Below the pieces are notes generated by a model. It searched no databases and had not been told where the DNA came from. It saw only the letters and a program-made list of their open reading frames with translations. The position numbers were made by a program, and so were the translations under genes. From Asterella californica (taxonomy: Eukaryota > Streptophyta > Marchantiopsida > Marchantiales > Aytoniaceae), in assembly GCA_036924285.1 (NCBI GenBank), contig JAYKYS010000004.1, positions 24,026,001 through 24,090,000 of the forward strand: 64,000 nt of DNA. Reading direction: 5' to 3'. Shown here one piece after another: positions 19,217 to 46,849 of the stretch; position 1 is the first letter of the stretch, and each line of letters begins with the position of its first letter.

Positions 19217-19232
19217 CTCACCCCCACTTTGG
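19217..19232 (-). promoter_or_regulatory. Element 1 polypurine tract
   Basis: On the minus strand a purine-rich word (AAAGTGGGGGTGAG) directly precedes the TG that starts the 3' LTR. This is the expected plus-strand priming site. Confidence 0.8.
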
Positions 19233-20392: not shown

Positions 20393-20428
20393 TTGCCGCC
20401 GATGCTTGTTTACCTGCTTCGTGTATCG

Positions 20429-23419: not shown

Positions 23420-23541
23420 GCTACAGTTACTAACCTTAGGTTTCGTGCACCCCTTAGCAATGTGGCCCGCCTCGCCACAGTTGTAGCAAGTAAACTTAGC
23501 GCCATTGCCCTTCTGAGGTGTCTGCCCCTTAGGTTTTACTC

Positions 23542-24516: not shown

Positions 24517-24622
24517 CGCTCCAAGTGTTCACCTAGAAACGCTGATCCGCTTCGTGTCTTGCGTCCCTCCTCAAGCGTCCAGCCTTCAGCCGCTACCTCA
24601 AGTTTTTGCTCACCGAAGCGTC

Positions 24623-24635
24623 GGCTCTGATACCA
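24623..24635 (-). promoter_or_regulatory. Element 1 primer-binding site (tRNA-iMet type)
   Basis: On the minus strand TGGTATCAGAGCC, the common plant primer-binding site complementary to the 3' end of initiator tRNA-Met. It sits five bases inside the 5' LTR end, which fixes orientation and LTR border. Confidence 0.93.
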
Positions 24636-24640
24636 CTTTT

Positions 24641-27928: not shown

Positions 27929-28189
27929 TTTTGATTTTGTTGCCAAGACCTCATCTGATTGTTGAAAAATGTTTAGAGTTCAATTCTATATTCGACAGAA
28001 GGAGCTCATGCGAGAGCACATGGAGAGAACATTGGGAGGAGCTAACACGATGTTAGTCACTTTATAACCTTTCGTGTATCTCGTAGTAATCTTTGACATG
28101 TTCGAGTTCATTCTCTATATCTTGTTCACTTAGTAAGAGTTGAGGGAAGTTGAAAGTGGATGCAACAAGAGTTGTAGAGAAAAAGGGAG

Positions 28190-28930
28190 AGAGAAGTTAT
28201 AAGAAGAGAAAAATTCGTGAGTTTAGAAATTCAACTCTCTGGAAATTGTGTATAGTTGCTGTAAGATTTTTTGTATTTTTTTCCTGTGACACTTTCGAGT
28301 ATTCTAGATTGGCTGATAAGCTATCTAAGACAACAGAAATCATAGGAGTAGGTGATATAGAGAGGGAGATATAAATTTTCAAAGTTGAGGGGGTTTATTC
28401 ACGAGAATTTAAGAATTCTGCTCTCTCGAAAATTTGTACAATCATTGTCAGATTTTTTGTGATTTTTATTTTTGTGAGAAATTCCAGTATTTTAGCTTGG
28501 ATGACAAGTTATATTGAAAAATAGAAATCATGGGAAGCTGAGGTCTAGAGAGAGAGATATAAATTTTCAGAGTTGAAGGGGTTTATTCGTGAAAGTTTAG
28601 ACATTCTGCTCTCTGAAAATTCTATACAGTCGCTGTCATCTTTTCTCTATTTTTATTTCTCTGTGAAAAATTCCAGGATTGTAGCTTGTCTAATAAGTTA
28701 TTATAAACAAAAATCATGAGAATATGATGCTTGGAGAGACACAGAATGTTTCAAAGTGGAGGGGGTTGACAATTATTAGTGAAGCAAAAATATAAAAACT
28801 TTAGTTCTTTGGAAATTTTTACAGTCAGCACCATTTCTTTTGATTAGGGAAGTTTTTGTTGAAACTTCATGAGTTTGTAGTTTCGAGGTTGAGATACTAG
28901 AAGCCACAAAAATCTTGGAGAGATCTCTTA
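28190..28930 (+). repeat. Tandem repeat of about 187 bp, nearly four copies
   Basis: Copies begin at an ATTC(G/A)(T/C)GAG-like word at about 28212, 28397, 28585 and 28774, giving periods of 185-189 bp. Each contains a TCTCTnGAAA word, a CAGTCGCTGTCA-like word and a GAGAGAGATATAAATTTTC-like join. It lies in the leader between the 5' LTR and the first reading frames of element 2. Confidence 0.75.
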
Positions 28931-29007
28931 CCGACTAAGAGATATACGTTTCGACATACAAAGAGATCTTTAAGATATTTCATGAGGAATCCATTTCGGT
29001 TACCGAG

Positions 29008-29289
29008 GTGGAAGAAGAGACTTTTGGGAGTTCGAATGGAGACGGAGAACCAAAGTTAAGTATAGATAAGTTGCGAATACACATCTATAGCACTTGGGGT
29101 GCTCTCTCTGCTCTATATCAAGAAGCTCTTGAAACCATTGGTGCAGATGTGAAGAAGGTTGAGTTGAAAGTATCATTCACTGTGGAGATCACGAATGCTC
29201 CTGGTGAAGTAGAGTTGGACGTGGAGTTTAAGATGTTTGCTGTGATTAGTACAGACAATGATCATGAGAATATTATCTTAGATAGTTAA
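29008..29289 (+). CDS. Small intact frame in element 2 leader, function unknown
   Basis: 93 codons beginning at a GTG, open until TAA at 29287-29289. The predicted product is acidic, with a helical-looking segment followed by regular beta-like alternation (KKVELKVSFTVEI, GEVELDVEFKMFAVI). I do not recognise a family. It is notable because the frames around it are full of stops. It may be the C-terminal part of an N-terminal extension of the element's gag frame rather than a free protein; no ATG supports a free start. Confidence 0.35.
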   Translation: MEEETFGSSNGDGEPKLSIDKLRIHIYSTWGALSALYQEALETIGADVKKVELKVSFTVEITNAPGEVELDVEFKMFAVISTDNDHENIILDS

Positions 29290-29412
29290 TTTTAGATTTG
29301 ATTTTATTTCGTGTATAATATGTATAGTACATGATTTCCAATATAAAACTCGAAAGAGTTAAGAAAGTGATGTAGAATTATTTTCCTCAAAGATATTTTG
29401 TCCACTTAATGA

Positions 29413-30650
29413 TTGAGAAGGCGTAACAACATGAGTGGAAGTTCAAAAGATTGGAAAGTTAGACTTAGAAATCTTCCTCAAGGTTTAAATTTCATAGTAA
29501 GTGTCGGAGAGAGCTCGAGAGAGATTATCGTTGAGTGTGAGAACACTAGTACAAAATCTCAAGTAGAATCTCTGAGGAGAAGAGTAGAAACCGACTTGTG
29601 ATGTTATTTCTATAGAGGAGTGAGACATAAAGTAGTGAATTGTCCAACTAGGATTAGAGCGGAGAGAGCAAAAGGAAAGCGGGAGTTTACTGATTTAAGT
29701 ATTCGAGTGGGTCCATTTTCACCAGCGTCAATTCATCTTCTAGGAGAGGATCCTTGTCCAAATTGAAGAGTGTGTGATATATCAAGAGGACACAAGTTTG
29801 TAGATGTGGTCGCTTTACTTACGTCAGTAGTCGAGAAGTTGGACGAGACACAGAGAGTTGAGACGGAGAAGTTGTTGATTTCAAAAGAAGACTCGGTTGA
29901 GTTGTGATGGAGTTTGTCATCCGGATAGTGGAGAAGAGCGATGATGCGACTCAGACTCATGATTACCTTGGGTGAAGAAATGACGCACGACGTGTTGTTA
30001 CAACCGTTTTCTTTTACTTTATCTATGGTAGATTATTCTCGAATGAAATTGGTGATGTTCATACTCTTTTAGCGAGTGTTATTGCACCAAGATTAGAAAA
30101 GTAGAAAGAGTAGTTACAAGATGAGGAAGCTACCAATGTTTCATGTGAAGGACAATGAAGATGTAGAGTCGTTTGTTCGAGACTTCAAAAGATGCTGCAT
30201 AGGAAAAAACGTGAGAAGGAAAGAAGAATGGGTGTTGTTACTGCTAGAGTTTTTAGAAGATTTTGCTTTTACGTGGTATGAAGACTGAGTGAAGAACAAG
30301 ACACCTGGTGGAGTTGAAGACACATGAAAGACTTTGAGTAACGCACTCATCGAAAAGTTTCTTCCATAATAGAGTTATGAGAAGCTCATGATGGAGCTCA
30401 CTCATTTGAAGCAACGGGACGATGAGAAAGTTCGGCAGTGTGCCGAAAAGGTGGATAAGTTGGACCGTCTTAAGAAAGAGTGGAGACAATGTCGAGCTAA
30501 CAATGGCAAGGATTGGAGCAGTGCTGATCAAGAATTTGGTGGGAGAGTTGAGGTCTTCAATTCGAACCCAAGTGAGGTACGAGAAGTCAGCAACCAAAGC
30601 GGAGACCGTCAGGATTGAGACAAATATGAAAGATAGTTTGGATGAAAGAG
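29413..30650 (+). pseudogene. Element 2 gag remnant
   Basis: Broken gag-like region. A degenerate zinc knuckle can be read just after 29600 (CYFYRGVRHKVVNCP, second Cys changed to Tyr). From 30121 a retrotransposon gag core is visible (LPMFHVKDNEDVESFVRDFKR, FLEDFAFTWYED), cut by TGA at about 30285 and further stops, then a helical segment around 30388-30618. The order knuckle before gag core is unusual. No intact product is possible. Confidence 0.7.
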
Positions 30651-31461
30651 ATATCATCCAACCTCATCATGCCGCTTTGGTGTCGACTCCGACTCTAGGT
30701 GTAACCACAACAATAGCATCTGCACCATCACAATTGATGATCGCTTCAATGTCAACTCCTACTCCAACTCCTACCCAATGCCGTTTGTCCCTACAAAATG
30801 GAGGAACAAAGAGGAGGAGGTCAAAGAGGTTACGACAACAATCCCGACCAAGAAAAGCAACCAAGGTAACTTTAGAGGAATCACATGTTGAACGTGTGGA
30901 GTATCTCATTTCCAACAAAATTTTCTGAACAACGAATGCTAAAATTGTCAGAATGAATGTTGGTGGAAGAAATCCATCACAAACACGAGACAAGAGAGTA
31001 ACTACTATCAATGTAATACGAGATCCCATCTATGAGAAGGGATAGAGTTTGAATTCTTCTCATGCATCGGTGGAGCTTTTAGCTCAAGAAAGAAAACAAA
31101 CTCGATTTTCTGACGAACCGGTTTTCATGGAGGAGTATCAAATAGAAGTACTCGCTCGAGTACTATTTCGAGTACACCAAGGGAGCCAAGAAGAAAGTTA
31201 GGGATGACGGATTTCATCATTTCATCTTCTCAAGCGAGATATGATGTGGCTGAAGATGTAGGTGCTCAAAATACCAACATCACGGTTGGGCAACTGATTG
31301 CGCTCAACCCCTCGTTTAAGAAGGGAACTCAGAGGAGGACTTAGTTCTAAGAGAAGCAAGAAGAAGAAACCCAAGAGAAAGACATCAAAATCTGTGGGAG
31401 TTGACGTGGTGGATGTGCATGCTTCAGAAGTATGCACTAGACTTCAAAGATTGAAGTCTGA

Positions 31462-31722
31462 TTGAATGGTCACTACGTCTCTAACGTATTGGTGGATAGA
31501 GGGTCAGCTATAAATGTCATATCGGAGAGGTTGACGAAGAAGTTGGAGATGGAACCAACTTGCCCGGCTAGCATTATTGTAGGAATGGCTAACAAGCAAC
31601 GAGTAAGACCTCTTGGTGTGTTAGAGAAGGTGGTTGTGTCTGTGATGAAAGTTCAAACATTGATGTCTTTTCAATTACTAAATGACTTTAGTTATGATTT
31701 GTTTCAAGTAGGCCCTGGTTGA
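31462..31722 (+). pseudogene. Element 2 aspartic protease remnant
   Basis: 87-codon open stretch with VLVDRGSAINVISE, the retropepsin-like active-site block in which the usual DSG has become DRG, followed by the expected IIVGMANKQRVRPLG flap-region pattern. Inactive by the loss of the active-site Ser. Confidence 0.75.
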
Positions 31723-32329
31723 GAGTTGTACGAACCACAGATAAGTGACACAAGAGCTATTTACGGATTAGGCCTAGAGATCACAAAGTGAGAATACCTC
31801 TCTCGGGTGTTAGAATTGTGAATTTTGACTCCTATAGACCCACTAGTGACTACTAAGAATCTGATACGGAAGATGATTGGAGTGTCTCATAGTAGACACG
31901 TGAGATTCTTATGATCAAGAATCCTCTTCTGATGACGAAAGATTTGGTCGAGATGAATCATTACATCAGCTTAGTGTTATTGACTTGTTGCTTCGATCAG
32001 CAATGAAGAAAGATCATGACAAAGAAAAGTTGAGTGGTGTAGAGATTGTGAGAGCACTCTCTACCTTGAAGTTTGATATCAATGTCACTCAAGATGAGAA
32101 AAGTAGATTCCTAGATATATTTCATAAATATATTGATATGTTTGCTTTCCGTTACAAGGATTTGAAGGAGGTGACTCTAGAGACTCATCAAATCGCAATG
32201 GAGGAAAACGCAAGACTAGTTCGACAGAAGCAGAGAAAGATCAATTCTACAACGATAATGATGATCAAAGAGGAGATAGACAAGTTGAAGGAGGCAAGTT
32301 TCATCTACGAGATGGAGAACTAAGAATGA

Positions 32330-32770
32330 GTTTCACCCATTGTGATTGTCAAGAGGAAGAATGGTAAGTTGCGAGTGTGCATAGACTATAAGAAGTTGAA
32401 TGCACTTACCAAAAAGGATGATTATCCTCTACCATTTATAGATGAGATTTTGGAGGAAGTTGCTGATCATTAGTGGCACAGCTTTGGTGATGGTTATAGT
32501 GGGTATAACCAGATCAAGATAGCACGGGAGTACCAGCAGTTGACTACATTCACTACTCCATGGAGTACATTTGCATTTCGAGTGATGTCATTTGGATTGT
32601 GTAATGCTCCTGTCACATTTTAGAGATTCATGAACAAGGTGTTTCAACCATTCATAGCGAAGTTTGTCCATGATTTCATTGACAATTTGTGTGTGCACGA
32701 AAGAAAGGAGGACCACTTTGATCATGTGATCAAAGTTTGCAGTGAAGCGAGCAAGCCAACGCTTCTCTAA
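32330..32770 (+). pseudogene. Element 2 reverse transcriptase remnant
   Basis: RT blocks in frame with stops between them: [59 protein letters not shown], and a catalytic box reading FIDN instead of F(L/I)DD. Two or more in-frame stops. A typical Ty3/gypsy RT, dead. Confidence 0.85.
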
Positions 32771-33064
32771 ATCCATAGAAGTGCATCTTTGGTTGCGAAG
32801 AAGATCTACTGTTGAGACACATCATTTCCAAGAATAGGATTGCGGTAGATCATGAGAATATGAAGACGATTGTGGATCTTCTATTTACGATCAACTTGAC
32901 AAAGTTGAGATAGTTTCTTGGCATGGTTGGATATTATCATAAGGTTTTTTTTCCTTCTCAAACAAAGCAATAGTGTTGACTATATACGTGAAGAAAGGAG
33001 TTGATTTTGACTTAATAGTGCATGCTCAAAGGCAAAAGAGTCATTAGAAGAGCTGAAAAAGACA

Positions 33065-33576
33065 TTGGTTATAACTCTTATACTTGCTAAACCTGAGTGG
33101 AATAAAACATTTATTTTGTATATGGATGCCTCCAATGTAGCGATCGGATGTACATTAAGTCAGTTAAATGAAGATGAGCATGATCATCCTTTAGCTTATG
33201 CTAGTAGGCAAATGATATCCGCTGAGAAGAATTACTCTGTGACGGAACAAGAAGGATTAGTCGTGATTTTTTATTGAATAAATTTCGACACTACTTGCTA
33301 GGAGGGAAATTTTCCATAGTCACAAATCACAAGACTTTAAAGTATATTTTTAATAAGCCTAATGCCGAAGGTCGTATTGCTCGTTGGAAGATCCTTCTAA
33401 CAGAGTATGATTATGTGATCAAAAATAGACTAAAGAAAAAGCATGCAGATGCTGATCTTTTGTCGAAGGCTTATGATGATGAGAGAGAAGAATCATTTGA
33501 TGATTCATTTTCAGATGAGCAAGTGATGACCATCTCAAGCATTGAAGAGGTACCTGACGAGTACAAGAAAATTTGA
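33065..33576 (+). pseudogene. Element 2 RNase H remnant
   Basis: Two adjacent open stretches with LYMDASNVAIGCTLSQL, YASRQMISAEKNYSVTEQE, then after a stop KFRHYLLGGKFSIVTNHKTLKYIF and a DADLLSKA end block. This is the standard Ty3/gypsy RNase H followed by the connector to integrase. Confidence 0.85.
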
Positions 33577-33649
33577 GTTTCCTTACAGATGGCTCTTTTC
33601 CAGAAGATATGCATACACGAGAACGTATTATGTTGATCAAGAGATGTAA

Positions 33650-34320
33650 ACTTTACACCATGGCGGAGGGAATTTTGTTTCATCAAGGAGCAGATGGATT
33701 ACTAAGGAGAGCAGTTGGTCAGAAATAAGCTTTCAAGCTAATGCACGAGTTTCACGACGACATTGTTTGCGGAGGTCACTTTGCTGGTAAGAAAATAGCA
33801 TTCAAGATTTTGGTTGGAGAGGTATTTTCAAGGAGTGTTTAGACTATTGCAAAACTTGTGACGTATGACATTTGCTCTAAAGTCTACTAGAACACCTCCG
33901 TTAAGATCAATTCCACTGTTAGGACCGTTTGAGAAGTAAGTATTGACTTTGTAGGTCCTCTTAATAAGACACCTAGAGACAATAGATATATTGTAGTCAC
34001 CATTGACTACTGTACCAAGTGGATAGAGGCTATACATTTGAGGAAGACTAATGAAACGAAAGTGGGTAGATTCCTACGAGAGAGGATCATCACAATAGAG
34101 TTGGTCTCAAATAGAGGAGGAGAGTTTGTAGAGAGCATGACTACTCCTATGTTGCAACACTTTTCTATCAAACCACGAGTAACGACGTCATACAAATCAA
34201 ATGCTAATGGTCTTGCGGAGAAGATCAATCTTACACTTTGTATGATGCTCGTCAAAGATGTTGGTGTTGAGACTGCGAAACATATTTGGAATAAGAGACT
34301 ACATATCATCTTATGAGAGT
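33650..34320 (+). pseudogene. Element 2 integrase remnant
   Basis: Recognisable pieces: HEFHDDIVCGGHFAGKK (zinc-finger His part), SIDFVGPL with first catalytic Asp, YCTKWIEA, LVSNRGGEFV where the second catalytic Asp is Asn, and SNANGLAEK with the catalytic Glu. Several in-frame stops. Confidence 0.85.
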
Positions 34321-34838
34321 ATCGAATGACAACAAAGACTTCTAATGGTATTCTCCATTTCGATTTGTTTATGGAGTGGAGTCCAAATTGCCGATCCAAT
34401 TCGAATTGGATATTTTTCAAACTATTCAACAAAAGTTGAAGAGGTCGAGGAGAGAAGACGTCGTCGGATCAAGAAAAGAGTAACTCATGGAGTTGGAAGA
34501 GATCTAGCGGTAGCAATGATCCGGATGGAACAAACTCAACCGTATCAAAAGAAGAGTTACGACAAACGATTGAGCAAGAGAGAGATACAACTTTTTCAAG
34601 TCAGAGATTGAGTAATGTTATATGATGCTATCATATTCAAGAGGTTCAGGAATAAGTTTTTTCTTAGATATTTTGGTCTTTTTGTGGTAGATAAAGTGTG
34701 GAGCAATTCACATATGACCTTCAAGAGCTCGGAGGAAGGAGATTGGATCGGATAAATCATAACAAGTTAAGGTTGTTTCATCAATGAAAGTTCTCTCTTC
34801 ACTCCGAGGACGGAGTAAAAAATTAGTCCGGGGTAAAA

Positions 34839-35682
34839 TGTAAAGACCTATGTTACACATATGAAGTTTGTCTATTATAAAGTTTTTAGTTATAACTAAG
34901 TGTGGAGAATGTTTATTTTTTGACCAAGTGCTTTAAGGATGTATCAAGTTAGTCATGATTAGCTAAAGTTAGTTATGGTTAAACTTTGATGTACTTTTGG
35001 ATATAATTCAGATATTTTTTAAAGAGTGAGCACTATTATCTTGTCTAAAAGATACAAAAGAGGTGGAAAATATCCATTATCTCATTTTTGACTTGACATT
35101 ATTGGTGGGATTAAAGTTGTAGACTTTGTGGACATTAAAAACAAGAAGAGATTCCACATGTCTCTTTTTTAGTGGGTCCTAGTGTAGAGAGGATGGAAAT
35201 TCGAGATTCCTTGAGAATATTCTAAAATCCTTCTACAAGTTGTTGACTTTGAAGAAATAAGCCCATGTGAAAAGGTAAGAAGCCCATGTGATTAATGCTT
35301 TTACCTTAAGTAATATCTTAGTAAAATCCGTTAAAAATAGTTACGATTGAGTAACCAAAGGGTACTAAAGTAAAAACCTATAATGTATAAATAGAGGAGT
35401 AAAGAAGATCTCATCATTCTTGTGTTCAGAGAGAATGATATTTTAGCATGGGAGAACTTGAGAGACGTCGTTAGAATAGATAATTATAGTTGATGAGTTT
35501 ATGGATGTGTGAATGAGTGAACTTAGCATTTTTCTGTTCAAGTTCATGGTGTGCTTCCATCAAAATCATCAGAGGTGACCTCTCAGTAAGAAACAGATCT
35601 GGCATGTTTTAGATTCATCGATGAGTATCGTGGAGGTTGAGGGATGGGGGTAGTTGTTCGATAGGACCGCGGAGAGTTTACA
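34839..35682 (+). repeat. Element 2, 3' LTR
   Basis: Starts TGTAAAGACC after a GGGGTAAAA purine tract and ends TTTACA. It carries the same TATAAATA at 35386-35393. Confidence 0.88.
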
Positions 35683-36350: not shown

Positions 36351-36412
36351 AAAACTTGAGCTCGGATGCGAGTTAAAAGAGATAGAGGAAAGAAGTATTA
36401 CCTCGTATTCCT

Positions 36413-36520
36413 TTGTCGTGCTCACACACATCGCTACACAACATACATCGCTGACAAAGGAACACCACATATACACATAACACATGGACGATGTCATACA
36501 CATACACGAGTGTACCACAA
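36413..36520 (+). repeat. 107-bp flanking repeat, copy A
   Basis: About 107 bp ending in GTGTACCACAA, immediately before the element 3 LTR. It matches 36803-36910 with a few changes and a small indel. Its ends TTCCTTTGTC and GACAAAGGAA can pair as a hairpin stem. Confidence 0.75.
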
Positions 36521-36801
36521 TGATAACAAGATATGTACTACTCCACCTGCCAACAGACACTAGACAATCACTACAGTCGAGTCAAATCCAGTTTGTGCTC
36601 GCAGAGAATCCAGATCTCACTCTCAAGACTACCCACCATAGTCAGGAGCTTGAAGGCTCAACTTGAAGAACTGAGGTCTCCAAGCCCCACCTGCGAAGTA
36701 TATCCCTTGTGGGCACTCTCACCAACTTGCCCTAACGGTCTTACCGGGGTCCGCCACTTCGCACTCGGTCAACCTAGCCGAGTCACCAAACTGACGTGAC
36801 A
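36521..36801 (-). repeat. Element 3, 3' LTR (281 bp)
   Basis: Plus-strand ends TGATAACAAG and TGACGTGACA; direct repeat of 46071-46353. It is flanked on both sides by copies of a 107-bp repeat. Confidence 0.85.
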
Positions 36802-36802
36802 G

Positions 36803-36910
36803 CTGTCGTGCGCATACACATCGCTACACAACATACATCGCTGACAAAGGAACACCACACATAACACATGGACGATGTCATAAACATACACGAGTGTACC
36901 ACAATCGCCC
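36803..36910 (+). repeat. 107-bp flanking repeat, copy B
   Basis: Begins directly after the LTR end and stops at GTACCACAA, like copy A at 36413-36520. Beyond it on the minus strand is a purine-rich word (AGGAGGGCGAT) that could be the real polypurine tract. Confidence 0.75.
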
Positions 36911-37085
36911 TCCTAACTGACGGTTAGGTCCCTCTAACTCCAGATAGCTCCATATCTCAACTACGTGATATACATCTTCATGGGTGCAAGGATCAGGAGG
37001 CCGGGTGCTACATTGCCCCATCGTTAGTCGCATGTCTGCAATCCATACCACGCAAAGATCTAATCGGCTATCCCTGCTATATACA

Positions 37086-38330
37086 TCAAGGACAAACCCA
37101 CCGTCCAATAGGAATGACAGTGAGAGGTGGAGTCAAACATGACATGTGCCAACCTCTCGAACAACCATCACACACCAACATACGGGCTGCTCCACCAGCA
37201 GATCCACACAACATACACCTTAAGCCTGCTCGTACAACTGCCAAGCTTGGGTCAACGGTACCATCGATGTTGGGAAGATGACATGACACGTAATTACGCA
37301 CATGGTCCTTCCAAACAACACCATCACGGCCCTCTAACATGAGTACTCCAGAAGGTAACACCTCACGCACTCGTAAAATAGTGCGTCTTGCGGTCACATC
37401 CAACGTCGTCGGTGCCGTCTGCTGCAGATAGATATAATCGTCAGGATGAAATCTGCGAATCAATGGCCGATAACCTCCTCCTCGGATAGTTGCATATCGT
37501 AACGTGTCTCTATGCTGAGCAATCGCTAGATTCTCAAAAGCCATGGGCATAACTCTTTGAAATGTCTCTACTCGTTGAGAACATGCTCTCACCCACATAT
37601 CCGGGTCATCAAGGTTCAGCACCTCAGTAGAATCACGACGAATGACCGAAGATAGATCTGGATCTCGACCGTATAATAGAAAATACGGTGAGAAGGAAGT
37701 CAAAGACGCTTGTCGGCTAAAACGGTAGCCCATAGCCAACCATGGTAACTGCACATCCTTGTCTCTCAAGTGACCCTTCTGCAAGCAATACTTACGCAAT
37801 CCTCTCTTCACCGTCTGAACTACCCTCTCCGCCAAACCATCCGCCTCAAGATGATCTCGAGATGTAGTTCGATGATCAATCAGCGCCTGATCACACAAGA
37901 TCTGAAACTCACCAAGGAACTCTGTACCTTGGTCTGTCAGCACTTCAACTGGTGCTCCAAAACGACTCAACACTCGATCTAAGAATGTATACGCTGTCCT
38001 TTCACTCGCCTTGTCTGGTAATGCCACCAACTCAATCCACTTGGAAAAGTGCTCCACCATCACCAACACATATCGATGATGACGTACAGTCAACGGTAAA
38101 GGTCCCGCAAAATCCAAACTCCAACGGTAACCCAACCTCATAATCGGTAAGGGGTGTAGTTGTGGAGTAGGAGCATTAAACGATGCTCGTACTCGATCAC
38201 AAACCACACATCGTGCAACAAACTTTTGCACATCGACGTGCATACCACGCCACCAATACTGTCCTTGGAGTAAGCTATGCGTGCGCTTCACTCCAAAATG
38301 TCCCAACTCCTCAGGAGCATGTCGTACTAA
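37086..38330 (-). CDS. Element 3 integrase with C-terminal PHD finger
   Basis: Continuous frame from just after a TAG at 38331-38333 down to TGA at 37086-37088, over 400 codons. Integrase parts: zinc-binding HHCC (RHAPEELGHFG...CVVCDRVR); catalytic core with RWSLDFAGPL, VLTDQGTEFLGEF and EADGLAERVVQT, so D, D and E are all present; then a GPY/F-like C-terminal region (RFHPDDYIYLQ, LRVREVLPSGVLMLEGRDG). The last 43 codons form a PHD finger: CMLC, MLVCDGC, GWHMSC, LTPPLTVIPIGRWVCP. The eighth ligand (Cys) is the codon right after the TGA, which is explained by CGA-to-TGA. PHD fingers read histone H3 tails; in chromoviruses a chromodomain occupies this place. Integrase would insert element cDNA, and the PHD could guide it to chromatin with a given H3 state (inference). 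Confidence 0.93.
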   Translation of the reverse strand, partial: LVRHAPEELGHFGVKRTHSLLQGQYWWRGMHVDVQKFVARCVVCDRVRASFNAPTPQLHPLPIMRLGYRWSLDFAGPLPLTVRHHRYVLVMVEHFSKWIELVALPDKASERTAYTFLDRVLSRFGAPVEVLTDQGTEFLGEFQILCDQALIDHRTTSRDHLEADGLAERVVQTVKRGLRKYCLQKGHLRDKDVQLPWLAMGYRFSRQASLTSFSPYFLLYGRDPDLSSVIRRDSTEVLNLDDPDMWVRACSQRVETFQRVMPMAFENLAIAQHRDTLRYATIRGGGYRPLIRRFHPDDYIYLQQTAPTTLDVTARRTILRVREVLPSGVLMLEGRDGVVWKDHVRNYVSCHLPNIDGTVDPSLAVVRAGLRCMLCGSAGGAARMLVCDGCSRGWHMSCLTPPLTVIPIGRWVCP

Positions 38331-38385
38331 CTATGCCCTCTGGGATGGATGTAGCACTATCCGTACTCTCCCATCATCTCACATG

Positions 38386-39174
38386 TCATCCTTCTCGTCG
38401 AAATCTCTTCGCTCGTTGAAAGACACGATCTCGCTCCTTGGCACTTACTGTGTCTACCACCACGTCAGTACGTAGATACTCCATCACGGTCACATCGTCA
38501 TGGATATCTCGCTGGTTTGGAACACCATCTCCACCCTCAGGATCTGGAGACTCGTCATCTACTCTCTCACTTGAGAAAGATACGACTTGGCCCTCCATAC
38601 TAGAGTTCATGACCAACACACAAAGAAAGGCAGATGTATGCCACTCCGGCACTATCTCCTCATCAACCTCGTCATGTCATCGAGCCCCAGTCTGATCCTG
38701 CTGACTCGTGCATGGGTTACGACTCAACCCATCAGCATCTAGGTTTGCAACTCCCGATCTATGCACTACCTGGAAGTCATACTCTTGTAAGATCAGAGCC
38801 CATCGTGCAAGCTTCCCTGCAAGCTTATCGGACTCCATCAACCACTTGAGCGGCTGGTGATCAGTGATGAGAGTAAAGGGGTTCCCAAACAGATAACATC
38901 GGAAGTGTGCAACAGTCCACACTGCAGCTAAACACTCCCCCTCGTACGAATTGTACCTCGCCTCCGCCGAATTGTTGGAGCGACTGGAATACGCCACCAC
39001 AAACTCCTTTTTCTCATCATCATGCTGAGTCAGCACTGCTCCAAGTCCCAACGTACTCCAATCAGTGTGCAGTTGGAAAGGACGTCCCCTAACGGGTCTC
39101 CTCAAGGTGAAAGCAGATGTCAACCTATCCTTGAGCTCCACGAAAGCTCGCTCTTGCTCATCTTCCCACTGTCA
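38386..39174 (-). pseudogene. Element 3 RNase H and connector
   Basis: RNase H frame 39141-38677 with FQLHTDWSTLGLGAVLTQ, VVAYSSRSNNSAEARYNSYEGECLAAVW, YLFGNPFTLITDHQPLKWLM and the end block VVHRSGVANLDADGLSRNP. It is preceded in frame by TAG (39178-39180) and TGA (39172-39174), and followed by TGA at 38677-38679, after which the same frame continues to 38386 as a low-complexity acidic connector (DDESPDPEGGDG). A frameshift lies between this connector and the integrase frame. Confidence 0.88.
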
Positions 39175-39177
39175 CTC

Positions 39178-40014
39178 CTAGTCCACCTTCATCAGCTTGG
39201 TCAATGGCTTCGCAATTGCACTAAATCCTTTCACGTATCGACGATAAAAATTTACCAAACTAACAAATGCTCGAACTCGACTCACATCTGTGGGACGTGG
39301 AATACGTGCAATGGCCTCGACCTTCGTCTGTTGAACACCCAACCCACCTGGGTAGATGGTGTGACCCAGATACTCTACCAACTCCTGGAAGAACTTGCAC
39401 TTCCCAAGGTGTAACTTCAACCCATGAGCTCTCAACCGCTCGAACACATCCCGTAAGTGTCTCTTGTGCTCCTCCACTGTAGCACTATAGACTAAGATGT
39501 CGTCAATATAGCATCTGACAAAATCCAATCCTGCTAGGATCCTATCCATCACTCTTTGGAATTCAGCAGGGGCGTTCTTCAACCCAAATGGTAAGAACCG
39601 CCACTGATACAAACAATCCTTGCCGTGAGAGTCAATCCCCCAGAATGTTGTCTTGGGTTTATCTTCCTCTCTCACCGGCAACTGATGATACCCTGCTCGA
39701 AGATCCAAAGTACTGAAGACCTTCACATGCCCCACTGCATCAAAGATCTCCTCAGGTGTCGGCATGGCATACTTATCGGACTTCGTCTGCCGATTGATAG
39801 GACGGTAGTCTCCACACATACGCCTATCCGTGTAGTTGTCATACATATCTTTCTTTGCTGGCATAATTGTGGCAGATGCATACTCTCCATGCGACATCTC
39901 CACCAACCCAGCTTCCACCAAGTCTTGAGTCCTACTCTGGATCAAGGTTCTCTCCATGTCACTGTACTTGTAAGGACGTCGAAAGATTGGCGTGTCATTA
40001 GTCAAGTCGATCAT
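39178..40014 (-). CDS. Element 3 reverse transcriptase
   Basis: 279-codon open frame (278 residues) from ATG at 40014. Blocks: RRPYKYSDMERTLIQ, LVEAGLVEMSHGEYAS, RMCGDYRPINRQT, FSTLDLRAGYHQLPV, LPFGLKNAPAEFQRVMDRIL, the catalytic box CYIDDILVYS, and KCKFFQELVEYLGHTI. All expected catalytic Asp residues are present. The upstream frame (with a segment encoding EDTWEPEIEPKLIGEERRR) ends by frameshift at about 40015-40030, so the ATG is inside what was one long polyprotein. Confidence 0.94.
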   Translation of the reverse strand: MIDLTNDTPIFRRPYKYSDMERTLIQSRTQDLVEAGLVEMSHGEYASATIMPAKKDMYDNYTDRRMCGDYRPINRQTKSDKYAMPTPEEIFDAVGHVKVFSTLDLRAGYHQLPVREEDKPKTTFWGIDSHGKDCLYQWRFLPFGLKNAPAEFQRVMDRILAGLDFVRCYIDDILVYSATVEEHKRHLRDVFERLRAHGLKLHLGKCKFFQELVEYLGHTIYPGGLGVQQTKVEAIARIPRPTDVSRVRAFVSLVNFYRRYVKGFSAIAKPLTKLMKVD

Positions 40015-40429
40015 GTATACCTGGTCCCTTCAAGGTATCCAAATCCTTCAAACTAAAGACAAAACAATTCCTGTAGGTCTTCAGGAATCTCTGAACTCTT
40101 CGTCTCTCCTCTCCTATAAGCTTGGGTTCGATCTCTGGCTCCCAAGTATCCTCTGTCACCATGCTAGAGGTAGAAGACGAAGTCGTTGACTGCTATCTTG
40201 CAGCCTCTAGAGCAGTTTCCTTCTGCTCACCACCAACAACCTCCACCGCTATTGTGCGAACAACATCTGCAGTTCTAGCTGCAAGCTCCATACTCTCTCC
40301 TATGACATCCCATGATGTCCAAGGATGACGAACTCCACGTGCCTCGCCCCCAGCCTTTGCCTCCACCGACTCGGTAGGCAAAGAGCTCAAGAGTGCTCGA
40401 GCAGTAACACCCGTCGATCGCATCCGACG

Positions 40430-41417
40430 CTGCTTAGCCAATCCAAGGTTAACAATCCATGTCAAGCAGTTCAAGTCCATTGCTTGACCCAACACTTGAC
40501 GACGTGAAGCCTCCGACACCGAAGCTACTGCCGTCGTACTCGTAGTGAAACCCATCGCTCGCTCTCTCTCATTGACATTGGGCTCCACCAATTGCCGTAA
40601 TTGAGCATCCCACACAAGCCCAGGTCCTATATCTCTGTAAGCATGTGACGCTGGAAAGCTTACCAAAGTGGGTAACGCTACCATGGGCCGTCCCACTAGG
40701 TTCACCACTGCCATGGGTGACCTATCGACGACTCTCACTACTTGAGATCGTCGTCCTGCATCCAAGATGCTATCAACCGTGAGATGCGTTGGTCGTCTCA
40801 CTCCATCGTGTGCGCGCTTAAGCACCTCTCTCGGTAACAAGTTCGTCCACCACAACCGTGGACGATGTGCACGAGATCCTACTCTCGCTGCATCCAACAA
40901 CACTGCTGGTCCAACCCAAGAACGAACCTGGTGCACACTCGTCATCATATGTGCACGAGCATCACCCAACAAAGGAACATTCTCCAAGATGTACGCTGGA
41001 GAAACCATCTGATGCATCTAGAGATGTCGTAAGATTCGTAACATCTCCCAAAACATCCTAGATCGTGGGTCATGCAAACCCTGACCTCTCCCAGCACGCG
41101 TGTGACCTTGACATGGCCACCCCGCTATCACCAAGTGAATGGTGCCAACAAACGTGAAATCATGCGCCCCCAGCAGTGAAATATCTGACGGCAATGCTTG
41201 CTGGTATCCTCTAACGGCTGATATAGACAACAACTCAGGATATCTCTGCACCAAACGTGCCACGTGCCACATGACGCAATGAGACGCGTCTTGCGACCTC
41301 ATCTCTCTCCACATACAAGTATCGCTTTACTTGTTTGCCTGCCTGCAATACCGCAGCCAAATCTGTGCTGATCCCTCCAAATAGCTCCAGCACACACACA
41401 CCCTCCTTTGGATACTG
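40430..41417 (-). pseudogene. Element 3 C5 cytosine DNA methyltransferase domain (DNMT3-like), broken
   Basis: Would transfer a methyl group from S-adenosylmethionine to cytosine C5 in DNA. Motifs on the minus strand: I (SAM binding) VLELFGGISTDLA at about 41390; II YLYVERDE; IV with the catalytic Cys, AGWPCQGHTRAGRGQGL at 41123-41102; VI SPAYILENVP at about 40980; VIII PAVLLDAARVGSRAHRPRLWW; a target-recognition region with LPTLVSFPASHAYRD; IX/X NERERAMGF at about 40570 and RRQVLGQAMDLN at about 40480. Linear order argues against permuted DRM enzymes and fits DNMT3-type. Breaks: TGA 41418-41420 upstream, a 7-bp tandem duplication (41257-41270) shifting frame between motifs II and III, and TAG 41018-41020 between IV and VI. 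It sits between protease and RT in the same orientation and initially the same frame as the protease. A bacterial DNMT insertion is unlikely given the position. Confidence 0.92.
41257..41270 (-). repeat. 7-bp tandem duplication inside the methyltransferase
   Basis: GTGCCAC twice in a row on the plus strand. Before it (minus strand) the motif I-II frame runs; after it the motif III-IV frame runs, one shifted frame away, so this duplication is the frameshift. Confidence 0.8.
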
Positions 41418-41420
41418 TCA

Positions 41421-42737
41421 TGCAATGAGAGTCGTATCCAACGGTGTTAAGGTCACAGGACCAGTAACAGGAACACCCCGATGTTCCTCTACTGACGGTA
41501 CGAAGACTTCACTCCAAGCCTGCTGCACCAACCGATCAGCATACTGCTGCAACTCTCCACTCGAACTCCAGAGTGGAACATCTAAAGCAGATGGTACTAA
41601 TGTAGACATGATAGACATGTCCTCCACCTTCTAAAAAACCGGAGTATCCTCCGCATGGACATTGCCCTCTAACAACTCGCCCGGCCAAGTGATCACCGAA
41701 CTGAAACCTACAACGGATGCCGTCGTCTTTGATGTAAGCTCCGTTGTCCCAATTCTAGCACTGAACCGCACTGGTAAGCGGCTCACTCGTCCCTCACCAG
41801 ACTGCCAACCTGGTCTGTAAGATGCTGTTTCTGCCCAATAGTCAATCACGAACCCCATAGGGTATAATACAGCACCTCCAACCAATACATCATGAGACTC
41901 CACGGCCGTAACGATAGCCTTGGTCCTCACCATGGAACCATCCGTGGGATGATCTGGTCTAACTCTCATCGTCAGCAACTCACGTGTCATGTGTAGAGTT
42001 GTACCTCCTGATCCCCCTAGAGATGTCTGTAGTTGGCATGGACATCTCTCTACTTCGGACTTCCTTAGACCCAAACCGATACACGCCGCCTTTCCCAACA
42101 TCAACGGTTGAGCTCCAGAGTCTAACAACACTTTCTGTGGTCGATACACCTTCCCTGAAGGTGCCACCAAACAGAAGATACCACTTCTGTTGTCCAACAA
42201 CACCACACCTAATGCCAATCCAGCACGGTCAATTGCCGGTCTAGCTGGTAACTCATCTAGCCTAGCAGCCGCCGCTTGCCAAGTACCACTAGTAGCTGTC
42301 CTGATCTTCGATTCCATGGACACATCTACCGTCTCTTGCTGAACCACCTCAGCACTAGAGGTAACCACATCCTCGCTCTCACTGAGCGTGGCTGCCAACT
42401 AGAACACTGGAGCCAAGCTGACTTCCAATGTCCTCATATCCGTGGCTGAAAATAGTGAGGCTCGCAAAACTACGGTAGCCGTCTCCAACATCGGGTTCGA
42501 CGTCGCATCCACAGACGTCGAGGGTTGACTCGCATTATCCTCACTCTTGGATGTCGATGTCTCAAACTCCACTGCATCTTCGGTAGGCCGTTTAGGAACC
42601 ATAGAAGTGGTACTCAATGCCTTTGATAGCGTGAACAATTGAGGAAGTCTGACCTGTCTACCAGCCTCTCCGCGTTGTGGATCCAACTCCACTGACGCAC
42701 CTCGTGGCTCGGAGATACGTACTGCACTCCGAATCAC
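41421..42737 (-). pseudogene. Element 3 aspartic protease with N-terminal linker
   Basis: One frame from 42737 to 41421 interrupted by TAG at 42399-42401 and TAG at 41631-41633. The core (42398-41631) has VLLDSGAQPLMLG, the retropepsin DSG active site, followed by DVLVGGAVLYPMGFVIDYW, which is the expected C-terminal protease block. The N-terminal part is a serine/threonine-rich linker. After the second stop the frame runs on through VEDMSIMSTL and into the methyltransferase motif I segment, showing that protease and methyltransferase were one polyprotein. The protease would cut the Gag-Pol precursor. Confidence 0.85.
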
Positions 42738-42739
42738 TA

Positions 42740-44215
42740 TCGATCAGATGTCTCAATCTGCGCCACACCAGCCATGAAGTCGAAGTCACCTCCTTCTCCT
42801 CCATAAGACGTGGAAGCTTCTGTTCGACCAGATCTCCGCTGAGCCATGACCATACTAGCTATCCTCTGCTCCAACTGCTCAATCCAAGCAGCCATACCTG
42901 CTTCTAACGTCGTAGCAGACGGTGGACCAACTGGTCCTCTCCCAGGTGCTGGACCTCTACCTCCAGCTCGACCACCACGGCTTCCCTAAGCTCTTTCATC
43001 TCGTCCACGATCAGCCTTTCCTTGCCGTAGCTCGAGATGGAGATCAAAACAGCGGTCACTACTGTGACCTGGTCATCCGCAGTGCTCACACTGCCTAGGC
43101 ACCGCTTGAGACGTCCCAGATGTCTCATAACTACCTCTCCTTTGTGGACAATCCTTCTGCTGATGAGGACCATCACACGTCCAGCAAGGACCTGCTTGCT
43201 GTTGACTAGAGAAAGACGGCATGGGCTTCTGCCCACTTGATCCTCCAGCACCTCCATGGGATCGTGAGTGCTCAGCATGATCCTTATCACCACCACCACC
43301 ACCACCACGCTGTTGCGTAGCCTGTGATCCTCGAGAAGAGGAGGTCGTCCCATGTGATGCGTCCTCCTATTGAACCCAGCAGTCACCACCCTCTCTTCTA
43401 TCATGTTGAGCTCAATCCGCTCAGCCAAACCAAAGACAACCGTCAATGTCGGAGCGGTGTCTCTAAAGAGAGTGGCATCTCTGACTCTCCTACGCAGCTC
43501 CCGGTCTAGTATCTCATACAAGAACTGGACTGCCTGTGCTTCCGTCACTCCTTGAGTAACGCTGATCAACCGCCTCATGCGAGTAAACACCTCGCGTAGG
43601 CTCTCTCCAGTCTTCCGCTGGAACTCCTGCAGACTCTTCAACTTGTCGATCCGCACACCCTGATAATTCTTCCTCAAACAGTGGAAGAACTAAACCACAG
43701 GGTTAAACTCTGGTGGTATCCCGCTCGCACTACCACCTGCTCCACTACTAGTGGACGCACCGCTGGTAGTAGGGACTCCGCCACCGTGGATGTACCACTA
43801 CTACCGGCACCTGACCTCGTAGGTGCTACGCCTCCTGAAATTGCATCAGTAGTGATAGAAACGTAGTTGGGAGACCAATGTTGTCTCCACAACTCAATCT
43901 CAACACCGTAGTCTCGTCTGAACTCGTGGTAATCGTCCATCGGCGGTCCCTCCAAGTGCTGAAACAAACTTTTCACGCCATGAAAGGTGTGAACGACTGT
44001 GGGTTCCGCATCTGCTGCAGATCGCACCAACTGTCGAACTCATGGATGAAGTCATCCAGCTCAATGGTACCCACCGTACCCGAGTAAAGTCGAGGCCCCT
44101 TCGTGGTCCCATAGATCTCGTCCATGTCCCACAACAACGATGTGGTGACACTAGACTCACCACCAGAAAATGCGCTGTCTGCGTCTGACTCGTCCTCTAG
44201 AACAACCAACGGCAA
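42740..44215 (-). pseudogene. Element 3 Gag with two zinc knuckles and RGG-rich tail
   Basis: Gag is spread over three frames. N-part from ATG at 44215: LYSGTVGTIELDDFIHEFDSW, then a one-base shift at about 43980 to SLFQHLEGPPMDDYHEFRRDYGVEIELWRQHW. The middle, 43677-43350, has LKSLQEFQRKTGESLREVFTRM and QAVQFLYEIL, a normal gag core. A GTG microsatellite (about 43288-43312) lies before a third frame, where two knuckles are readable: CWTCDGPHQQKDC (C-x2-C-x3-H-x4-C) and CEHCG-stop-PGHSSDRC, the stop TGA at 43073-43075. Then a TAG (42986-42988) and an RGG-rich tail (GSRGGRAGGRGPAPGRG). Gag would form the particle and bind RNA. Confidence 0.78.
43288..43312 (-). repeat. GTG/CAC trinucleotide microsatellite in element 3 gag
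   Basis: Seven or so CAC units on the plus strand. It encodes polyvaline in the shifted frame and lies close to where the gag reading frame changes. Confidence 0.7.
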
Positions 44216-46070
44216 TGGTGTAGGTCGTCAGTACCTCACCTCACTCCGTGTATACCCACTGTCCGAGAAGTCCCCACCAGAACCTCTCGAGAACTCCGTG
44301 GTGATAGAATCTCACGGATACACTCTCTAACCAGAATGTAGAAATCCTCGTCACCACCGTAACTACAACTTGCCTATCCTCGCTCCTACTGAGCTCACTT
44401 ATCTCCTACTAGGACGGTCAAGGAAAGAGCAACCTCTACCTGCCATCACCACGAGCAGCCTCTCACGATTTGTTGGTCGTCACTCCAACTGCACCGTGAG
44501 AGAAACAAAGATAGTCTGACTGGTCATCGCTCCAGCCTCACTACCGACAGCACACTAGAGTGAACTCACTCTGGAAATCAAGCGCCAACACAAGCAAACG
44601 CGGCGCACAAACAAGAAGCAGAATATGGAGGGGTTCCAACCACAAGAAGTCCAAATGATAACCCTCCTCACTCAAACATTCACATAAAGAGAAACCCAGT
44701 CCCACCTGGACTGACGCGTCTTCTTCGGTGACCACATGCACAATATATGGTCACCGACTATTATAACCTGTACCTAAGGTCACTAACTAGATGTCCATAC
44801 CTCTAGTAGCTCCAAAAATATCAAGGTGATAGCTCTACTAGCTCATCCAAGACAACTGCCACCAACTGCCTCCATACGTGTCTTTACGGTATAGGCAAAC
44901 ACTACCACAACAGCAGCTTCCTCTTAGTACTCTGGGGTCGCCCTACCACTCCTCTAGGAACATACGAGCAAGTCTCCTACTATCCTAAACCAGCCCCTAA
45001 GTACTTGCACGGATCCCTGTAAGACACCAAGAGCTATTGGTCTAGTGGTACAGCCAAAGTTGAGACTATAGAGTTAAGCGTCCAAGTCCAGAAATAGTGT
45101 TGGGATGGGTGACCTGTTGATTTTACACTTCTCACACAACTGAAACTTGGATATCTCTCTCACGCACGCCAGCAAGCTGGCTTGCGGCGAGCTCGGGCTC
45201 AGGCTCAAGCTCCGCTCCGCCTCCGCACTCTCGCACTCACGCACCTCTGCTCCTCGAAGCCTCTAAACGCCTCCTAACACGCACTCCACACCTCCACACT
45301 CCCCCTCACTCTCCGCTCCGCTCCGCCTGGAGAAGAGTAGAACCCACAAACAAGGACGAGTACGACGAGAAAACACCCGAAACAGCAACTCAGGGTCGAA
45401 ATTGCACCAAATTGTCGAAATCAGCCAATTTGGAACTCGCATACGGGATTTACCTCAGATTTTGACCAACCCGCGGCCTTCTTCAGCTTGTAACTTCGTC
45501 GATCCTTCACCAAATCGAACGATTTTGGTTGCGTTGGAATCGTCTTCCCGGTGCGCACCTACTGCACTCCTCAGATCCACAAATTATCGACCCATGCCAA
45601 CCTGACACACGCCGACGCACTTCGGCCGACCTAAAATCCGTCATCAAAATCCGTCACCAGAAATTCGATTTCCCATAACTCGCAAACGGCTCGACCAAAC
45701 TTCGTGAAACTTCGTGCACTAGGACCGTCTTCCCAGCGCGCTTCCAACGAGCCCACATTGACCTGACATTGTCGACTACTTCGTCTGCCACGCCCAAATG
45801 GACACTTCAGCTCGAAACAGGTCACTTCAACACATTCCGCAAAATTTCAGCAGCGCTTCCGCACTACCTCACCACCAAATCGACTGCGAACAAGTTCAGA
45901 CGACACCCATCCACACAGCGATCGATCACAACATCCAAAACGAACTACTCCACACACGTGCGCACCCGCAAATCGAAGATACCAACGATCTGCCAACTCC
46001 GGAGATACCACCGGCAGCAATCTGCGACCTGAAATCCCTAAATCAGACCTCTCAATCCGAGTTCTTCAAG
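44216..46070 (-). other. Element 3 leader between 5' LTR and gag
   Basis: About 1.85 kb without a credible coding frame. It holds a pyrimidine-rich (plus strand) block at about 45190-45345 with CCGCTCCG words, a 5S rRNA-like segment in plus orientation (45072-45114), and two partly similar stretches (about 45500-45560 and 45670-45740) each containing a GTCTTCCC(G/A)G(T/C)GCGC word. Long leaders are common in plant Ty3/gypsy elements. No tRNA-iMet primer site is seen at its start. Confidence 0.5.
45072..45114 (+). ncRNA. 5S rRNA-derived segment with box A and box C of the internal promoter
   Basis: Contains AGTTAAGCG (box A core) and GGATGGGTGACC (box C) separated by exactly 22 bases, the same spacing as in plant 5S rRNA as I remember it. 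The bases between are diverged and the 5S ends are absent, so it is not a 5S gene. 5S-derived promoters of this kind are known in Cassandra TRIM elements and in SINE3-type elements. Confidence 0.65.
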
Positions 46071-46353
46071 TGATAACAAGGTATGTACTCACTCCACTTA
46101 CCAACAGGCACTAGACAATCATTACAGTCGAGCCAAATCCACTCTGTGCTCGCAGAGAATCCAGATCTCACTCTCAAGACTACCCACCATAACCAGGAGC
46201 TTGAAGGCTCAACTTGAAGAACTGAGGTCTCCAAGCCCCTACCTGCGAAGTATACTCCTTGTGGGCACTCTCACCAACTTGTCCTAACGGTCTTACCGAG
46301 GTCCACCACTTCGCACTCGGTCAACCTAGCCGAGTCACCAAACTGACGTGACA
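46071..46353 (-). repeat. Element 3, 5' LTR (283 bp)
   Basis: Direct repeat of 36521-36801 with about 17 differences. No 107-bp repeat flanks it, unlike the other LTR. Confidence 0.88.
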
Positions 46354-46849
46354 CCTTAGACATGACACAATCGTGTCCTGGTCGAGCTTATCGATCAAAG
46401 ACGTTGTATTAGTTTCAACCGTAGAGAATTATTTCGACAAATGTGTTCTCGTAAAAATGATCTTACTCGGCATGTTTGTTAACTGAGAGATTTTAATCAA
46501 AATGTTCTCAGATGTACTTACGTGAATAAGTTGTCATCTTCGGCGATGCAGGTTTAATGACCGCTTATAGTACATGTGATATGTGATATGTGCAACTTCC
46601 ATTACAATCATTTTCATGGTGCGTGTTGAGTCTTGTCTTGATATCATCATAAGTAGTATTTCTGTTGCGTACACAAGGTGTTGCTATCGTCAAGCTAAAG
46701 TGTGCGATGTCCATCAGATTTTAGATATGCACATCTCAAACATGAACCTGTACGAGCACTCGCAAAGTTCTAGATCCAGACAACACTTGAAAATGATGCA
46801 TCTCAGTTTCGTCATCCAAGTTAAAGCTTCTGTTCACTTCTACCTAAAG
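46354..46849. other. Flank of element 3, nothing recognised
   Basis: About 500 bases to the right of element 3 without gene or transposon motifs. It passes into the satellite-like block. Confidence 0.4.

What the first reader, a model, noticed from the sequence alone, without database searches (positions are those of the whole stretch)
40430..41417. DNA methyltransferase captured inside a Ty3/gypsy retrotransposon
Motifs I (VLELFGG), IV (PCQG), VI (ENV), VIII and IX/X (ERERAMGF, RRQVLGQ) of C5 cytosine methyltransferases lie in linear order between the element's protease and RT, on the same strand, and motif I shares the protease frame. Linear order fits DNMT3-type and excludes permuted DRM. 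DNMT capture by retrotransposons has been reported in dinoflagellates and in a charophyte, where de novo CG methylation was shown; a copy here suggests the system is wider or that this genome is from that lineage. An element that methylates its own DNA could hide from, or exploit, host silencing.
Basis: partly seen in the sequence, partly recalled or inferred. Interest (0 to 1): 0.95.

Follow-up and report, generated by a model that had tools for sequence, protein, structure and literature searches.

The report
Retrotransposon carrying a DNA methyltransferase
A many-copy family of jumping genes in a plant genome, probably a moss or liverwort, carries its own DNA-methylating enzyme and a histone-reading type of finger on its integrase, so it may mark its own new copies chemically.

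Summary
At 36414-46353 (minus strand) lies a decayed 9,940-bp Gypsy element with TGTC...GACA ends, an AAGG/AAGG target duplication, and the order gag, protease, DNMT, RT, RNaseH, integrase, PHD finger.

The DNMT is DNMT3-type by profile, predicted fold and unpermuted motif order. It is a fixed part of the element: relatives named Marchantia, Riccia, Calypogeia and Sphagnum have it. The window's 516.7-Mb genome gives 123 PF00145 matches; of the 40 at ranks 3-42, 39 are this element type.

ORF1 (gag-protease-DNMT) ends at UAG CAG UCA, a tobacco-mosaic-type leaky context, in 18 of 18 distinct copies whose frame reached it. In 10 of 16 copies with a ~1,370-codon frame, ORF2 (RT to PHD) runs on in frame for 1,038-1,041 codons. 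The DNMT core is under purifying selection (pN/pS 0.20).

Closest known: KnitGypsy-Dnmt3 of a charophyte alga. New here, as far as the papers searched show: bryophyte hosts, many intact copies, DNMT at gag dosage before a probable readthrough stop, the PHD finger, two DNMT positions. What the methylation does is inferred.

The parts
36414..46353 (-). whole Gypsy/DNMT element, 9,940 bp, termini TGTCACG...CACGACA
   Evidence: ends, length; repeats
46354..46357 (.). 4-bp target-site duplication AAGG, 5' side of the element
   Evidence: the same arrangement in other copies
36410..36413 (.). 4-bp target-site duplication AAGG, 3' side of the element
46071..46353 (-). repeat A1 (5' end); BLAST 93.7% to A2
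36804..36905 (-). repeat B1
36521..36801 (-). repeat A2; the B1-A2 junction is the palindrome GACA-GC-TGTC (36798-36807)
36414..36520 (-). repeat B2 (3' end)
42907..43689 (-). gag piece, up to 74% identical to the gag region of Marchantia relatives; zinc-knuckle-like motifs near 43.2-43.1 kb seen by eye in another frame
   Evidence: collinear in relatives; Pfam found no family here
41634..42398 (-). protease piece (LLDSGA near 42128) and linker to the DNMT
   Evidence: relatives P0141, P0142, P0145 and P0146 score as aspartyl protease at the matching place; the window piece itself scores in no family
41238..41417 (-). DNMT piece 1, motif I (LELFGG)
   Evidence: matched by relatives
41021..41326 (-). 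DNMT piece 2, motif IV (WPCQG), PF00145 E=3.6e-7 (1e-7 for 41021-41191 alone)
40196..41017 (-). DNMT piece 3, motifs VI-X and a 91-residue tail
40187..40195 (-). conserved ORF1 stop TAG followed by CAGTCA (CARYYA-type readthrough context)
39181..40029 (-). reverse transcriptase (RVT_1 E=3.5e-33)
38680..39171 (-). RNase H (RT_RNaseH E=2.5e-36)
37089..38330 (-). integrase: H2C2 zinc finger (4.8e-13) and rve core (1.6e-13)
37089..37217 (-). PHD finger at the integrase C terminus (PF00628 E=1.4e-9), cut by a stop before its last cysteine in this copy
   Evidence: complete in relatives

Best explanation
Shown: this is a dead copy of a multi-copy Ty3/Gypsy-type element whose normal gene set includes a DNMT3-type cytosine-5 methyltransferase and an integrase with a C-terminal PHD finger. 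The layout in open copies is ORF1 gag-protease-DNMT, an in-frame UAG CAG UCA stop, then ORF2 RT-RNaseH-integrase-PHD. It is flanked by split direct repeats (A1 ... B1-A2-B2) and inserts with a 4-bp target duplication. Inferred: most ribosomes stop at the UAG, so the DNMT is made at gag dosage and packed into the particle, while a readthrough minority supplies RT and integrase. After processing by the protease, the DNMT methylates the element's own new cDNA before or at integration. The insert then arrives looking like methylated host repeat DNA, and the PHD finger helps choose the chromatin of the target.
Against: No enzyme activity, expression or methylation data were available here. KnitGypsy-Dnmt3, the nearest tested element, gave no de novo methylation in yeast, a result its authors call inconclusive. 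The element is not CpG-poor (observed/expected 0.79; other parts of the window 0.64-0.89). Its 14 A1/A2 transitions fall 1 in CG, 2 in CHG and 11 in CHH contexts, so nothing here points to heavy CG self-methylation. The DNMT core is somewhat less constrained than RT (0.20 against 0.07), and its last 91 codons look unconstrained. Readthrough is inferred from sequence context only, and the copies compared within this genome are related, so part of the stop's constancy may be descent. Some related proteins have DNMT and RT in one predicted frame without the stop (P0164, P0168).
Confidence: 0.6

Rival explanations
1. The DNMT acts mainly in trans on host chromatin: it disturbs or redirects host methylation (or silences competing copies) rather than marking the element's own cDNA.
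For: Catalytic motif strings are present in all 10 copies checked, and the DNMT lies in the more abundant product if the stop is leaky. The published authors also discuss effects on the host epigenome.
Against: The DNMT is fused to gag and protease, which favours packaging. In K. [quoted passage not shown]
Confidence: 0.2
2. The DNMT domain serves the particle without DNA methylation: it binds or methylates element RNA, or is a structural or nucleic-acid-binding part of gag.
For: The position is at the C terminus of the gag-protease ORF. The published authors raise RNA methylation for the LINE relatives.
Against: The motif IV cysteine (94 of 99 rows) and motif VI glutamate (127 of 138 rows) are conserved, and the profile is nearer to DNA-methylating DNMT3 than to the tRNA methyltransferase DNMT2.
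Confidence: 0.12
3. A passenger: the DNMT was captured and hitch-hikes without a role.
For: The last 91 codons show no constraint, and many copies are broken.
Against: Core pN/pS is 0.20 between 10 open copies. The DNMT is kept in Marchantia, Riccia, Calypogeia and Sphagnum relatives. Against ten M. polymorpha proteins (P0121, P0122, P0125-P0127, P0129-P0132, P0134) the window's DNMT piece 3 is 60-74% identical and the protease piece 45-58%.
Confidence: 0.05
4. A host DNMT gene, pseudogene or separate insertion that happens to lie between protease and RT of this one copy.
For: Only the broken window copy seen in isolation could suggest it.
Against: The same order recurs in other species' proteins. 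In all 16 fetched copies with a ~1,370-codon frame the stop string was found, and 14 of 16 show a Y-x-D-D reverse-transcriptase motif in the frame after it. A host DNMT3-like exon and a DRM-like exon lie elsewhere and differ.
Confidence: 0.01

Closest known systems
KnitGypsy-Dnmt3, Klebsormidium nitens (de Mendoza et al. 2018, PMC5890265; abstract, sections 9 and 11, and passages seen)
   Same: DNMT3-type, unpermuted DNMT inside a Gypsy-type element; the figure legend says its repeats are arranged as in a DIRS element, which fits A1...B1-A2-B2 here; purifying selection on the DNMT in both.
   Different: Bryophyte relatives rather than an alga. DNMT in the gag-protease ORF before a conserved stop, while the paper places it in the Pol polyprotein ORF. 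PHD finger on the integrase (the word PHD is not in the paper's main text). 123 genome matches with many open frames. No K. nitens sequence appeared by name among the listed hits, so direct kinship was not tested.
SymbioDIRS-Dnmt3 and SymbioLINE-Dnmt, Symbiodinium (same paper)
   Same: Retroelements that carry a cytosine methyltransferase; two domain orders coexist in the DIRS set, as two DNMT positions do here.
   Different: DIRS elements with a tyrosine recombinase, or LINEs. Here there is a DDE integrase and a 4-bp target duplication.
Chromoviruses (Gypsy elements with an integrase chromodomain)
   Same: A histone-reading type of module at the integrase C terminus, used for targeting in known cases (recalled; a reference with that title is listed).
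   Different: A PHD finger, not a chromodomain.
Ginger1 DNA transposons (PMC2836005, passages seen)
   Same: Gypsy-like integrase with a C-terminal PHD finger in one listed element, Ginger1-9_HM.
   Different: A cut-and-paste DNA transposon of Hydra; RT and DNMT are not among the domains named in the passages seen.

Membership tests
Ty3/Gypsy LTR retroelement | RT-RNaseH followed by a DDE integrase, in the order protease-RT-RNaseH-integrase | tested here: met
   the DNMT lies between protease and RT.
Ty3/Gypsy LTR retroelement | TG...CA ends and a short fixed-length target duplication | tested here: met
   exact 4-bp duplication in 7 of the 8 copies with both outer ends seen; the eighth matches in 3 of 4 letters.
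Ty3/Gypsy LTR retroelement | two complete terminal repeats | tested here: not met
   The 5' end has A only, the 3' end B-A-B. So it is Gypsy by genes and ends, not by repeat layout.
DNMT3 (C5 methyltransferase) | unpermuted motif order I-IV-VI-VIII-X | tested here: met
   contrast with the permuted DRM-like exon L002 (read by eye).
DNMT3 (C5 methyltransferase) | closest relation to DNMT3 among C5 methyltransferases | tested here: met
   PDB profile search and fold. No tree with host DNMT3 as outgroup was made.
DNMT3 (C5 methyltransferase) | DNA methylation activity | not testable with these tools
   Only conservation of catalytic residues.
KnitGypsy-Dnmt3 type | Gypsy genes plus DNMT3 plus DIRS-like repeat layout | tested here: met
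   compared with the paper's text and legend only, the figure was not seen.
KnitGypsy-Dnmt3 type | DNMT and RT in one Pol open frame | tested here: not met
   A conserved in-frame TAG separates them.
KnitGypsy-Dnmt3 type | sequence kinship with the K. nitens copies | not tested
   No entry named Klebsormidium among the proteins listed by the three searches (120 of 251, 30 of 30 and 51 of 51 listed).
DIRS retroelement | tyrosine recombinase instead of DDE integrase | tested here: not met
   rve integrase found, no recombinase family reported in the scanned pieces.
Chromovirus | chromodomain at the integrase C terminus | tested here: not met
   PHD finger found there instead.

The most novel reading that the evidence does not exclude
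A writer-reader retrotransposon lineage, old in streptophytes. A DNMT3 enzyme made at gag dosage through a leaky stop pre-methylates the cDNA, and a PHD finger on the integrase, of a kind that in hosts reads the histone H3 tail (recalled), places it. The element thus carries the two halves of a DNMT3 system (writer and histone reader) in separate proteins. It has kept the DNMT through the moss-liverwort split, and in different clades of the family the DNMT sits at two different positions in the polyprotein.
Probability: 0.35. Interest if true: 0.85.

Novelty: new variant of a known kind. Interest (0 to 1): 0.73.

Why it matters
In the papers found, DNMT-carrying retroelements are described from dinoflagellates and a charophyte. 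Finding the DNMT as a standard, selected part of a recently copied family in bryophytes, with relatives named Marchantia polymorpha, Riccia, Calypogeia and Sphagnum, brings it into genetically tractable models. It makes an open question directly testable: why would a parasite methylate DNA when methylation is what hosts use to silence it? The probable leaky stop and the PHD finger give concrete handles on dosage and on target choice.

Tried and rejected
Window copy only: Pfam finds nothing in the 274-codon DNMT piece, the motif I piece, the gag piece or the protease piece by themselves; they became clear only through relatives. Rfam found nothing in the window at its gathering thresholds. Scans of IMG/VR for related loci gave no relative. 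Literature searches found no report of bryophyte DNMT-elements or of a PHD finger on a Gypsy integrase in the listings of the open-access library; of the papers listed I looked inside only those cited in this report, and subscription journals and preprints are not covered. Copy counts and repeat counts by DNA query against the genome did not complete (see below).

Considered and dropped: host pseudogene or separate insertion; permuted DRM; DIRS element; passenger without selection. In one search the stop was located by searching for its own string, so the unbiased count is that, where it was found by translation.

A DNMT tree (50 rows) and an RT tree (23 rows) both separate the two DNMT positions, but with modest support (71/94 and 86/76). 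Three short rows (P0138, P0148, P0170) were left out of the DNMT tree, and of the 33 proteins typed by position 22 had enough RT for the RT tree. The 79-row tree took 78 of the 150 proteins then held, those covering most of DNMT piece 3. No host DNMT outgroup was included, so one capture against two is open.

Full report
What was checked. The minus-strand frames of 36.5-44.5 kb were read. Pfam gives DNA_methylase for 41021-41191 at 1e-7, RVT_1 3.5e-33, RT_RNaseH 2.5e-36, rve 1.6e-13, Integrase_H2C2 4.8e-13 and, at the integrase C terminus, PHD 1.4e-9. The PHD's nearest solved sequences include PHF12, KMT2D, DPF2/DPF3, CHD4, KDM5B and KAT6A fingers.

The element. Self-comparison found repeats. 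The element runs from 46353 to 36414 on the minus strand, 9,940 bp, with ends TGTCACG...CACGACA and AAGG on both flanks. The repeats are not two full LTRs: the 5' end has A only, the 3' end has B1-A2-B2, and the B1-A2 junction is the palindrome GACA-GC-TGTC. This is the layout of split direct repeats (term recalled). The published charophyte element is described in its legend as having DIRS-like repeats with Gypsy genes. A1 and A2 differ by 14 transitions, 1 transversion and 2 gap columns.

The same layout in other copies. Flanking stretches of 10 copies of the own genome were fetched. B-A-B was seen in 7 of the 8 whose 3' end fell in the stretch; the eighth has a single B. With the window copy, 8 copies show both outer ends: 7 have an exact 4-bp duplication and one matches in 3 of 4 letters. 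For the other 3 copies one end lay outside the stretch or was not recognised. Short duplications with TG...CA ends fit the DDE integrase. A circular or junction-bearing intermediate could explain the B1-A2 junction; this is inference.

Distribution. Three protein searches gave 251 (E<=0.01), 30 (E<=0.001) and 51 (E<=0.01) proteins, of which 120, 30 and 51 were listed. Mapping window pieces on them shows gag-protease-DNMT (P0121, M. polymorpha), protease-DNMT-RT-RNaseH (P0130) and gag-protease-DNMT-RT-integrase (P0133, S. fallax) in order. The annotated plant proteins are gene models and appear to skip the stop. A tree of 79 rows puts the window in a 36-row clade with these bryophyte sequences (98/95) but outside the Marchantia polymorpha and Sphagnum subclades.

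Two positions. Among 33 database proteins with DNMT and RT or RNaseH, 14 have the DNMT before RT, as here, and 19 have it between RNaseH and integrase. The RT tree separates the two (86/76), and so does the DNMT tree (71/94). A PHD of the C4HC3 pattern is found in 23 of 189 fetched proteins, in both groups. One predicted protein holds protease, DNMT, RT, RNaseH, integrase and PHD together (P0164, 2,358 aa).

The own genome. The window lies in an unnamed assembly of 516,715,530 bases. The PF00145 search scored 123 of 1,249 first-look candidates; every listed row is over the curated cut-off, 10 have a stop inside the match, and 16 lie in open frames of 1,367-1,381 codons. The top two matches are a DNMT3-like exon (PDB best DNMT3A 2.7e-14) and an exon with motifs IX-X before motif I, as in DRM (read by eye). 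DRM is reported as restricted to streptophytes (PMC12344493, section 5), so the host is probably a streptophyte, and by its element's place in the tree probably a bryophyte. Of the 40 matches at ranks 3-42, 39 hold an element-type DNMT; one (L025) gave no hit. The other 81 were not looked at one by one, save that stretches of 11 of them with long open frames were fetched later.

The conserved stop. Translating those stretches from the DNMT, the frame reached the homologous end in 17 distinct copies counted by the script (20 rows, three copies being held twice) and in one more (L024) whose motif pattern the script missed. All 18 end in TAG followed by CAGTCA. The other copies met an earlier stop, a frame change or a rearrangement. 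In the window the stop is TAG CAGTCA at 40187-40195; of 422 stop triplets of the element in any frame, 2 are followed by CARYYA, this one included. In other species' rows the protein ends 85-95 residues after the same motif in 26 of the 112 where the motif was found; others end earlier, later or continue. CARYYA after UAG is the tobacco mosaic virus readthrough context (passages of PMC2754532 and PMC4132726). Downstream, 16 copies with a ~1,370-codon frame were fetched: 10 of 16 have ORF2 open for 1,038-1,041 codons in the same frame, ending just after the PHD finger.

Selection. For the 10 copies with both frames open, pN/pS is 0.20 for the DNMT core (bootstrap 0.12-0.34), 0.29 with its tail (0.18-0.46), and 1.84 (0.59 to the cap) for the 91-codon tail alone. 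ORF2 gives 0.11, RT 0.07, RNaseH 0.14, integrase 0.13 and PHD 0.10. Among 9 copies with an open DNMT frame from the first sample, median Ka/Ks is 0.27, range 0.17-0.57 (33 of 36 pairs with Ks>0.02). Copies were chosen for open frames, which favours low values to some degree.

How it most likely works. Shown: anatomy, conservation, selection, and recent copying (the 10 open copies differ by 0.1-3.2% in the DNMT). Inferred: leaky termination puts the DNMT at gag dosage; the DNMT methylates the new cDNA; the PHD finger guides integration. Published activity exists for the dinoflagellate relative; the charophyte DNMT was inconclusive in yeast. Against a simple CG self-methylation story, the element is not CpG-poor, and its A1/A2 changes are mostly in CHH context.

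Known or new. The kind is known (DNMT-carrying retroelements, PMC5890265: abstract, sections 9 and 11 and passages seen). A 2025 survey repeats it for streptophytes and dinoflagellates, naming LTR Copia and DIRS families, without naming bryophyte elements in the section read (PMC12344493, section 5 and passages). Passages of PMC8616336, PMC9516144, PMC10952607 and PMC11244446 were also looked at and do not mention such elements in bryophytes. All ten literature searches were made; none of their listings showed a report of this element in bryophytes, of its PHD finger or of its leaky stop. None of the ten asked for a leaky stop in DNMT elements as such.

Noticed in passing
proteins P0162, P0164, P0168, P0170 and many RT-RNaseH-DNMT-integrase proteins: The proline of methyltransferase motif IV (PCQ) is replaced by glutamate (ECQ) in 15 to 19 element DNMTs, depending on the way of counting, from both position groups. 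That the proline is near-invariant in known enzymes is recalled.
   Followed up: partly
19 database proteins among P0166-P0186: In a second clade the DNMT sits between RNaseH and integrase instead of between protease and RT.
   Followed up: partly
copy on contig C526, loci L061 and L062: A copy with only one B repeat at its 3' end, still flanked by a 4-bp duplication (CCTC); it may reflect B1-B2 recombination or an insertion without the A2-B2 part.
   Followed up: no
window 18114-25735: Another Gypsy element, 1.1-kb end repeats 95.5% identical, with open pol (20432-23590, minus) and gag (23545-24423, minus) frames.
   Followed up: no
window 27047-35667 and 55743-56195: Remains of a further element with repeats 87-88% identical and an integrase-core match on the plus strand (33933-34313), and a Copia-type RT fragment (RVT_2).
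   Followed up: no
window 1469-1738 and 9888-10673, plus strand: Likely host gene exons: a GAD domain (7.9e-8) and an R3H plus SUZ protein.
   Followed up: no
window 36414-46353: TpG is raised in the element (observed/expected 1.36 against 1.04-1.08 elsewhere in the window) while CpG is not low.
   Followed up: partly
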